A stretch of 64,000 nt of DNA, from positions 1,178,001-1,242,000 of the forward strand of contig NZ_JALLGW010000001.1 of assembly GCF_023074835.1 (NCBI RefSeq), written 5' to 3'. Source of the DNA: Halomarina salina (GTDB lineage Archaea; Halobacteriota; Halobacteria; Halobacteriales; Haloarculaceae). A model generated the notes under the pieces. The model did no database searches, was not told the origin of the DNA, and worked only from the letters and a program-made list of their open reading frames with translations. This document shows positions 19,019-19,279 of this stretch, in pieces; position 1 is the first letter of the stretch, and each line of letters starts with the position of its first letter. Both the position numbers and the translations under genes were made by a program.

Positions 19019-19083
19019 CTCGTCGACGTTTTTCGAGGAGTGGTCGTGCTCCGCGCGACCACTCCTCGAAAAACGTCGACGAG
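19019..19083. repeat. Perfect 28-bp inverted repeat with 9-nt loop
   Basis: Arms at 19019-19046 and 19056-19083 are exact reverse complements (28 of 28), separated by TGCTCCGCG. As RNA this would form a very stable hairpin; as DNA, a cruciform. Its right arm abuts the tRNA-derived repeat beginning at 19081. The arms contain the GTCGAC palindrome and a run of five T or A. Confidence 0.9.
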
Positions 19084-19100
19084 CACGATGGGATTCGAAC
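19081..19100 (-). repeat. Duplicate of tRNA-Arg 3' end (20 nt)
   Basis: GAGCACGATGGGATTCGAAC is identical to 19207-19226, the acceptor and T-arm end of the tRNA-Arg gene. Direct repeats of tRNA 3' ends are typical attachment-site footprints of integrated elements. Here the two copies are only about 106 nt apart, so any element has been lost or was very small. Confidence 0.75.
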
Positions 19101-19205
19101 AACGTCGAGACGTGCTCGCTCACGGTGTTCGCTGCGCGCGACTCGCCTCGTTCGAACCCATCTCGGTTCGTTCGCGGTCGCTCGCGTCCGCTCGCGACAC
19201 GCTCA

Positions 19206-19279
19206 CGAGCACGATGGGATTCGAACCCATGACCATCGGATTAGAAGTCCGACGCTCTGTCCTACTGAGCTACGTGCCC
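19206..19279 (-). tRNA. tRNA-Arg (anticodon TCT)
   Basis: On the minus strand this 74-nt sequence folds as a standard cloverleaf. The acceptor GGGCACG pairs with CGTGCTC (one G-U). The D-arm is GCTC...GAGC. The anticodon stem TCGGA/TCCGA holds loop CTTCTAA with anticodon TCT (reads AGA). The T-arm is ATGGG-TTCGAAT-CCCAT and the discriminator is G. CCA is not encoded and there is no intron. Fragments of this gene are repeated downstream of its 3' end. Confidence 0.97.

What the first reader, a model, noticed from the sequence alone, without database searches (positions are those of the whole stretch)
19081..19279. tRNA-Arg 3' fragments next to the tRNA gene, one split at TTCGAA
Read on the minus strand, the tRNA 3' end is followed by ATGGGTTCGAA (19151-19161), about 50 nt of unrelated sequence, and then TTCGAATCCCATCGTGCTC (19081-19099). 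Together these would rebuild a second T-arm and acceptor, interrupted at TTCGAA with that hexamer present on both sides. This looks like an attachment-site copy later broken by a small insertion, or two successive integration events.
Basis: partly seen in the sequence, partly recalled or inferred. Interest (0 to 1): 0.5.

Follow-up and report, generated by a model that had tools for sequence, protein, structure and literature searches.

The report
Mini-repeats that copy tRNA tails
The tRNA fragments beside this gene are one copy of a short, gene-less hairpin repeat that sits behind many tRNA genes in salt-loving archaea and usually ends in a copy of that very tRNA's own last twenty or so bases, which looks like an undescribed family of tiny mobile elements rather than the relic of a single virus.

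Summary
The 20-nt copy (19080-19099) of the tRNA-Arg(TCT) 3' end is exact. The second fragment, ATGGGTTCGAA, is not half of a split T-arm: the nearest congener reads GGGATTCGAA there, and behind tRNAs with A57 the fragment is an inverted repeat (40 of 44 units; direct 1, tied 3). It is the 5' arm of a hairpin. This 106-nt unit belongs to a family: in the window's genome (probably Halomarina) 24 of 43 tRNA genes carry a copy of their own 3' end downstream on the same strand (0 of 43 upstream). Copies match the local tRNA, not another (161 own, 1 foreign, 37 undecided of 199). Filled and empty relatives show precise insertion or excision. The 80 titles shown, of 104 subtype-1 matches in about 85,000 species, are all Halobacteria; viral contigs gave none. 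Best reading: non-autonomous, gene-free elements inserted at tRNA 3' ends by site-specific recombination, probably by haloarchaeal tyrosine integrases acting in trans. The enzyme is inferred.

The parts
19206..19279 (-). tRNA-Arg(TCT) gene; its last 20 nt (19206-19225, T54 to discriminator G73) are the block that is copied
   Evidence: ARAGORN; RF00005, 74.9 bits
19162..19205 (-). module h1 of the unit: first, variable part between tRNA and inverted arm; similar in window, G004, G006 and G001
19150..19161 (-). inverted arm (ATGGGTTCGAAC here; GTGGGATTCGAAC in G004): complement of the T-loop and 3' T-stem of the copy, one base shorter than in G004
19101..19149 (-). module X: inner hairpin of the unit (subtype with GTCGCGCGCAGCGA...GAGCACGTC)
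19080..19099 (-). direct copy of tRNA nt 54-73, exact; end of the unit

Best explanation
The feature is one unit of a haloarchaeal family of short, gene-free mobile elements that occupy the 3' ends of tRNA genes. Each unit is laid out, reading away from the tRNA: a variable module h1, an inverted arm complementary to the T-loop and 3' T-stem, an inner hairpin module X, and a direct copy of the tRNA's own 3' end (T-loop to last base). SHOWN: the layout, its recurrence behind many tRNAs, tRNA-specific matching of both the copy and the arm, presence or absence between related species with junctions at the copies, tandem arrays, one orientation in all cases seen, restriction to Halobacteria among what was searched. 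INFERRED: units move as small circles or hairpin DNA and are inserted at the tRNA 3' end by site-specific recombination, which regenerates an intact tRNA and leaves the displaced end as the distal copy; because the units encode nothing, a tyrosine recombinase supplied in trans is needed. SNJ2-type integrases, restricted to Halobacteria and with a 13-bp site at a tRNA 3' end (review PMC8371274), are the best candidates. New units seem to be added next to the tRNA (weak evidence).
For: Own genome: 24 of 43 tRNAs have an own-tail copy downstream, 0 of 43 upstream, 0 of 43 on the reverse strand (first seen). Congener G004: 14 of 41, upstream 0, reverse strand 2; 13 tRNAs filled only in G000 and 3 only in G004, so turnover is fast. 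Filled and empty sites: the flank after the copy aligns with the base after the tRNA in empty relatives, best L075/L076 (for L037, L050, L087, L088). Own tails 161, foreign 1, undecided 37 of 199 sites; own tail strictly best for 86 of 95 units over 22 isoacceptors. Identity to the local tRNA is 0.98-1.00 for nt 53-71 (0.96 at 64), 0.96 at 72, 0.87 at 73, and at control level at nt 52 (150 copies chosen by score). The inverted arm is tRNA-specific at nt 62-65 but not beyond (134 arms; observed 427, highest of 2000 permutations 371). Of 110 subtype-1 hairpins found without regard to tRNA strand, 95 lie behind a same-strand tRNA and 0 are reversed relative to a facing tRNA within 400 nt. Modules h1 have changed places relative to X between G001 and G005. 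A tyrosine integrase (PF00589) lies beside a tail copy, identical to that of tRNA-Val(TAC), which is followed by a unit in L225, so a classical element seems to use the same block.
Against: No enzyme was linked by experiment or by co-occurrence. No subtype-1 unit was found in viral contigs; the window's unit found nothing in phages and one partial plasmid match, so a carrier is unseen. Internal foreign tails, which free exchange of units would allow, are nearly absent. The left edge of the copied block varies (GTTCR, GTGAG, GTTCAC or only nt 60-73), unlike a single fixed crossover. Growth next to the tRNA rests on 34 arrays, part of them chosen by pattern (first copy 0.24 mismatches, second 0.91); in the 17 arrays not so chosen it is weak (first better 7, worse 2, tied 8). 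Only 4 of 16 tRNAs filled in one of G000 and G004 and empty in the other have flanks that align right at the junction.
Confidence: 0.5

Rival explanations
1. Transposition with a long target-site duplication: a transposase or Cas1-like integrase (casposase-like) inserts the hairpin element at the tRNA 3' end and duplicates 14-21 bp of target, so that the copy is always the local tRNA's.
For: Explains directly why copies are own at 161 of 199 sites and foreign at 1, and why the block ends at the tRNA end with a sharp left edge. Some hairpins share only nt 60-73, 14 nt.
Against: A fixed stagger should give a fixed left edge, but edges differ between subtypes. The inverted arm is also tRNA-specific, which a plain duplication does not explain. 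I saw no terminal inverted repeats by eye but made no systematic search. Casposon target and duplication length are recalled, not checked.
Confidence: 0.2
2. Functional RNA: the trailer hairpin and second 3' end act in tRNA processing, termination or regulation and are kept for that.
For: Hairpins are more stable than shuffles (z -2.3 for the window unit, -4.0 to -6.5 for seven others, verbatim sequences only). In 21 subtype-1 hairpins of similar length (of 90 distinct ones) 6 of 16 predicted pairs keep pairing in some sequences through changes on both sides. Present in most haloarchaea tested.
Against: Presence differs between congeners for 16 of 41 tRNAs and between species for tRNA-Arg(TCT) (34 of 75 filled). 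Where copy and tRNA disagree at nt 62-65 the arm follows the tRNA 19 times, the copy 4, neither 6, so pairing with the copy is not being maintained. The inner module is replaced wholesale between congeners.
Confidence: 0.15
3. Tandem duplication, slippage and gene conversion alone: repeats next to tRNAs expand and are homogenised to the tRNA end without any integrase.
For: L211 holds two units in tandem that read the same; module exchange between G001 and G005 could be homologous recombination.
Against: Does not explain how single units arise at formerly empty tRNAs, nor how the same X subtype comes to stand behind 22 isoacceptors.
Confidence: 0.1
4. Ordinary attachment-site relics of larger proviruses or plasmids, shrunk by deletion.
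For: tRNA 3' ends are the usual archaeal integration sites, tRNA-Arg(TCT) among the most used (PMC8371274 section 18); an integrase gene sits at such a site in L225.
Against: Gap lengths are narrow, 125 of 127 between 68 and 286 nt, median 115, the others 780 and 2242, and the inserts share hairpin modules. They follow more than half of the tRNAs of one genome.
Confidence: 0.05

Closest known systems
tRNA-integrating elements with tyrosine recombinases, above all the haloarchaeal SNJ2 type
   Same: Same target (tRNA 3' end), direct repeats of the tRNA end, intact tRNA after insertion; the SNJ2 integrase family is restricted to Halobacteria (review PMC8371274, passages and section 18 seen)
   Different: No integrase or other gene in the unit; about 100 nt long; behind many tRNAs at once; sometimes tandem; carries an inverted arm matched to the tRNA
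Integron cassette arrays with folded attC sites (recalled)
   Same: Tandem units at one platform, each ending in an imperfect hairpin, one orientation seen; possibly growth next to the platform
   Different: No gene in nearly all units, platform is a tRNA gene, no integron integrase shown, core sequence only partly resembles GTTRRRY
MITEs, PATEs and small mobile repeats of Haloquadratum (PMC3119063, passages seen)
   Same: Short, mostly gene-less mobile repeats in a haloarchaeon
   Different: The passages seen describe no tRNA-end duplication; those elements have terminal inverted repeats or IS605-like palindromes
178-bp tandem repeats of the E. coli tyrT locus and rtT RNA (recalled)
   Same: Tandem units behind a tRNA gene, each holding a piece of the tRNA 3' end
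   Different: One locus in one bacterium; the window region matches no Rfam family but tRNA at the curated threshold

Membership tests
tRNA-site integrative element (tyrosine recombinase type) | Insert bounded by direct repeats of the tRNA 3' end, tRNA left intact | tested here: met
tRNA-site integrative element (tyrosine recombinase type) | Encodes an integrase | tested here: not met
   The unit is 106 nt between copies
tRNA-site integrative element (tyrosine recombinase type) | Is moved by a tyrosine integrase supplied in trans | not testable with these tools
   needs an in-vivo assay
Integron-type cassette array | Folded attC-like hairpin (two paired boxes, constant orientation) at each unit end | tested here: inconclusive
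   Hairpins fold and covary and none of 110 is reversed, but attC box sequences and extrahelical bases were not tested
Integron-type cassette array | Integron integrase gene next to the array | not tested
   no integrase search around each array was made
Integron-type cassette array | Cassettes carry genes | tested here: not met
   125 of 127 gaps are 68-286 nt; of the other two, L211 has a two-gene insert inside a unit and L236 a second tRNA-Gly gene with its own units
Insertion with ordinary target-site duplication of the TTCGAA hexamer | Direct repeat of the hexamer on both sides | tested here: not met
   Behind A57 tRNAs inverted better in 40 of 44 units, direct in 1, tied 3
Rfam RNA family other than tRNA | Score above the curated threshold | tested here: not met
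   sbcD 36.4 bits against threshold 40, at 19028-19178

The most novel reading that the evidence does not exclude
A gene-free relative or analogue of the integron: haloarchaeal tRNA T-arms act as platform sites, the unit hairpin (inverted arm plus copy as one box, inner stem as the other) acts as a folded single-stranded recombination site, and units are added next to the tRNA, making arrays that record past insertions at dozens of tRNA genes per genome.
Probability: 0.2. Interest if true: 0.9.

Novelty: new variant of a known kind. Interest (0 to 1): 0.75.

Why it matters
If right, many tRNA genes of haloarchaea carry a layer of mobile DNA small enough to have passed as intergenic sequence. 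It would offer a natural system in which one kind of element adapts to dozens of different tRNA targets, perhaps a readable record of insertion order, and a ready test of how site-specific recombination and tRNA genes became linked. It also warns annotators: tail copies mimic attachment sites, and ARAGORN's intron mode read tRNA plus unit as intron-containing tRNAs in many loci.

Tried and rejected
ARAGORN in intron mode gave misleading tRNAs and was replaced by the plain mode. Split T-arm or hexamer target duplication: rejected. My first count for this (71 of 94 inverted, 0 direct) was inflated, because 63 of the 94 came from loci found with a pattern that contains the arm; in the unselected remainder the exact 8-mer was in 16 of 31 (G000 6 of 12, Arg set 10 of 12, G004 0 of 7), and the local-alignment test replaces it. 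Orientation: 98 of 98 is likewise mostly (84) from that collection; the 0-of-110 test replaces it. Selection keeping the arm paired with the copy: not supported. Reverse transcription through a modified base at position 57 (copies have G where the tRNA has A in 16 units, the opposite in 1) was considered from recalled knowledge of archaeal tRNA modification and left open; an edge supplied by the element would explain part of it. The Rfam hit sbcD is below threshold. Paper searches (10 of 10) showed no description of tRNA-tail units in their listings; SNJ2's own paper is not held. In the scripts the control genome G205 is labelled 'methanogen'; its identity is not known. My notes call the tRNA of L035 and the tail in L225 tRNA-Thr; ARAGORN gives tRNA-Val(TAC) for L035.

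Full report
WHAT IS THERE. On the minus strand a tRNA-Arg(TCT) gene (19206-19279) is followed after 106 nt by an exact 20-nt copy of its own 3' end at 19080-19099. No third copy exists in the genome within two mismatches over 19 nt.

WHOSE GENOME. The window is G000:C1:1178001-1242000 of a 4.46-Mb genome. So the genus is probably Halomarina (Halobacteriales); this is an inference.

THE SECOND FRAGMENT IS AN INVERTED ARM. In congeners the same place reads GTGGGATTCGAAC (G004), GGTGATTCGAAG (G006), GGCGATTCGAAC (G001). TTCGAA is palindromic, so tRNAs with A57 (TTCAAAT) decide between direct and inverted. In units of G000, G004 and the tRNA-Arg(TCT) set, which were not found through the arm, the inverted form of the tRNA's nt 53-65 fits better than either direct form in 40 of 44 A57 units, worse in 1, tied in 3; for G57 tRNAs 30 of 37, worse 5, tied 2. 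The window's unit is among those that contain a direct-looking GTTCGAA.

A GENOME-WIDE FAMILY. Of 43 tRNA genes found with RF00005, 24 have an own-tail copy within 600 nt downstream (score at least 13), none upstream, none on the reverse strand. Inserts share a plan: module h1, inverted arm, inner hairpin X, tail copy. First copies begin 78-204 nt behind the tRNA, and four of the 24 tRNAs (L035, L039, L041, L045) have more than one unit; L035, tRNA-Val(TAC), has three with different inner modules. In G004 the count is 14 of 41; 11 tRNAs are filled in both, 13 only in G000, 3 only in G004, 14 in neither, and 2 of 43 are not comparable.

DISTRIBUTION. A generic arm pattern matches 18 of 19 genomes of the order and 3 of 101 others in a phylum sample of 120; in one of the 18 (G243) the single match is the tRNA-Ser gene itself, and the row list was cut, so other low counts may include the same artefact. 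A subtype-1 pattern gives 104 stretches in about 85,000 species; the 80 titles shown are all Halobacteria. Of 110 hairpins in those 104 loci, 95 lie 31-378 nt behind a same-strand tRNA of 22 isoacceptors, and none is reversed relative to a facing tRNA within 400 nt. Of the other 15, I looked at 11: four follow what by eye are intron-bearing tRNAs (L186, L208, L229, L230), three lie within 190 nt of a locus start (L179 twice, L238), and four (L198, L211, L225, L235) have no adjacent complete tRNA, L211 having its tRNA and further units 1.2 kb upstream. The four not looked at (L164, L223, L233, L239) begin within 104 nt of a locus end. Viral contigs: 0 for subtype 1. With the window's unit, phages: none; plasmids: one partial match, Natronorubrum bangense.

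BOUNDARIES AND SPECIFICITY. In 150 good copies identity to the local tRNA is 0.98-1.00 over nt 53-71 (0.96 at 64), 0.96 at 72, 0.87 at 73, and at control level at nt 52; it decays after 73 but stays above control for several bases. These copies were chosen by score, so their internal identity is inflated; in 95 units chosen by the hairpin alone, identity at nt 62-73 is 0.83-0.98 and 68 have at most one mismatch there. Of 199 T-loop-like sites behind 247 tRNAs, 161 carry the own tail, 1 a foreign one, 37 neither; many of the 37 look like own T-stems with a changed acceptor part. The inverted arm matches its own tRNA better than others at nt 62-65 and not further. In some subtypes the block starts later (GTGAG, GTTCAC edges) or covers only nt 60-73.

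INSERTION. For tRNA-Arg(TCT), 34 of 75 family members are filled. The 75 come from 82 matching genomes of 146; left out were four lysine-tRNA-like matches (G027, G078, G081, G096) and three that I did not fetch (G095, G140, G145). In pairs such as L075/L076, L067/L057, L113/L112 and L128/L127 the flank after the copy continues with the base that follows the tRNA in the empty relative. Between G000 and G004, 4 of 16 discordant tRNAs show this at the junction; the rest do not align there or align elsewhere.

STRUCTURE. Eight verbatim hairpins fold better than shuffles as DNA, weakest the window's own (z -2.32, 4 of 200 shuffles as good) and strongest that of G006 (z -6.52). In 21 aligned subtype-1 hairpins, picked for similar length from 90 distinct ones, 6 of 16 predicted pairs show changes on both sides with pairing kept, two of them in the inner stem. 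Yet at nt 62-65, where copy and tRNA differ, the arm agrees with the tRNA 19 times, the copy 4, neither 6: the copy decays and the arm is not adjusted.

DYNAMICS. The h1 module of G001's first unit equals that of G005's second (score 49 of 49), and G001's second resembles G005's first (34 of 46), while the X modules keep their order (41 of 51 and 17 of 30). In 34 arrays the first copy has fewer mismatches than the second (0.24 vs 0.91); in the 17 arrays of the set not chosen by pattern the direction is the same but weak (7, 2, 8 tied). Gaps between successive tails are 68-286 nt in 125 of 127 cases, median 115. L211 (Halorubrum vacuolatum) has two like units in tandem and a two-gene insert (a MarR-like regulator and a protein without Pfam match) inside a further unit.

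MECHANISM. The pattern is that of a precise, repeated insertion at tRNA 3' ends. Archaeal tyrosine recombinases favour exactly this place, tRNA-Arg(TCT) being among the most used, and SNJ2-type integrases are limited to Halobacteria, with a 13-bp site reported for SNJ2 (PMC8371274, passages and section 18). A classical integrase gene lies beside such a block in L225. I therefore favour units moved in trans by such enzymes. Target duplication by another kind of integrase remains open, and a role of the trailer as RNA is less likely given the turnover.

KNOWN OR NOT. Ten searches of the open paper library listed nothing that describes these units; most subscription papers are not covered.

Noticed in passing
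window 19019-19083: 31-bp palindrome (97% complementary arms) directly behind the tail copy; similar sequence follows tRNA-Arg in other genera without units (L059, L066, L068, L070), and partial copies occur elsewhere in the genome (C1:3051327, C1:3066723).
   Followed up: partly
L211 3720-4520: Two small genes (MarR-like regulator and a 142-aa protein without Pfam match) sit inside a unit hairpin behind tRNA-Leu(TAA) of Halorubrum vacuolatum.
   Followed up: partly
L225 5858-6844: Tyrosine integrase gene next to a tail copy identical to that of tRNA-Val(TAC), followed by a unit.
   Followed up: partly
units behind many tRNAs: Copies read G at position 57 where the tRNA has A far more often than the reverse (16 against 1).
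   Followed up: partly
L236 1340-4380: Two tRNA-Gly(GCC) genes 2.5 kb apart each carry their own array of units.
   Followed up: no
loci: ARAGORN intron mode reads tRNA plus unit as an intron-containing tRNA ending at the tail copy, a possible source of false intron calls.
   Followed up: no
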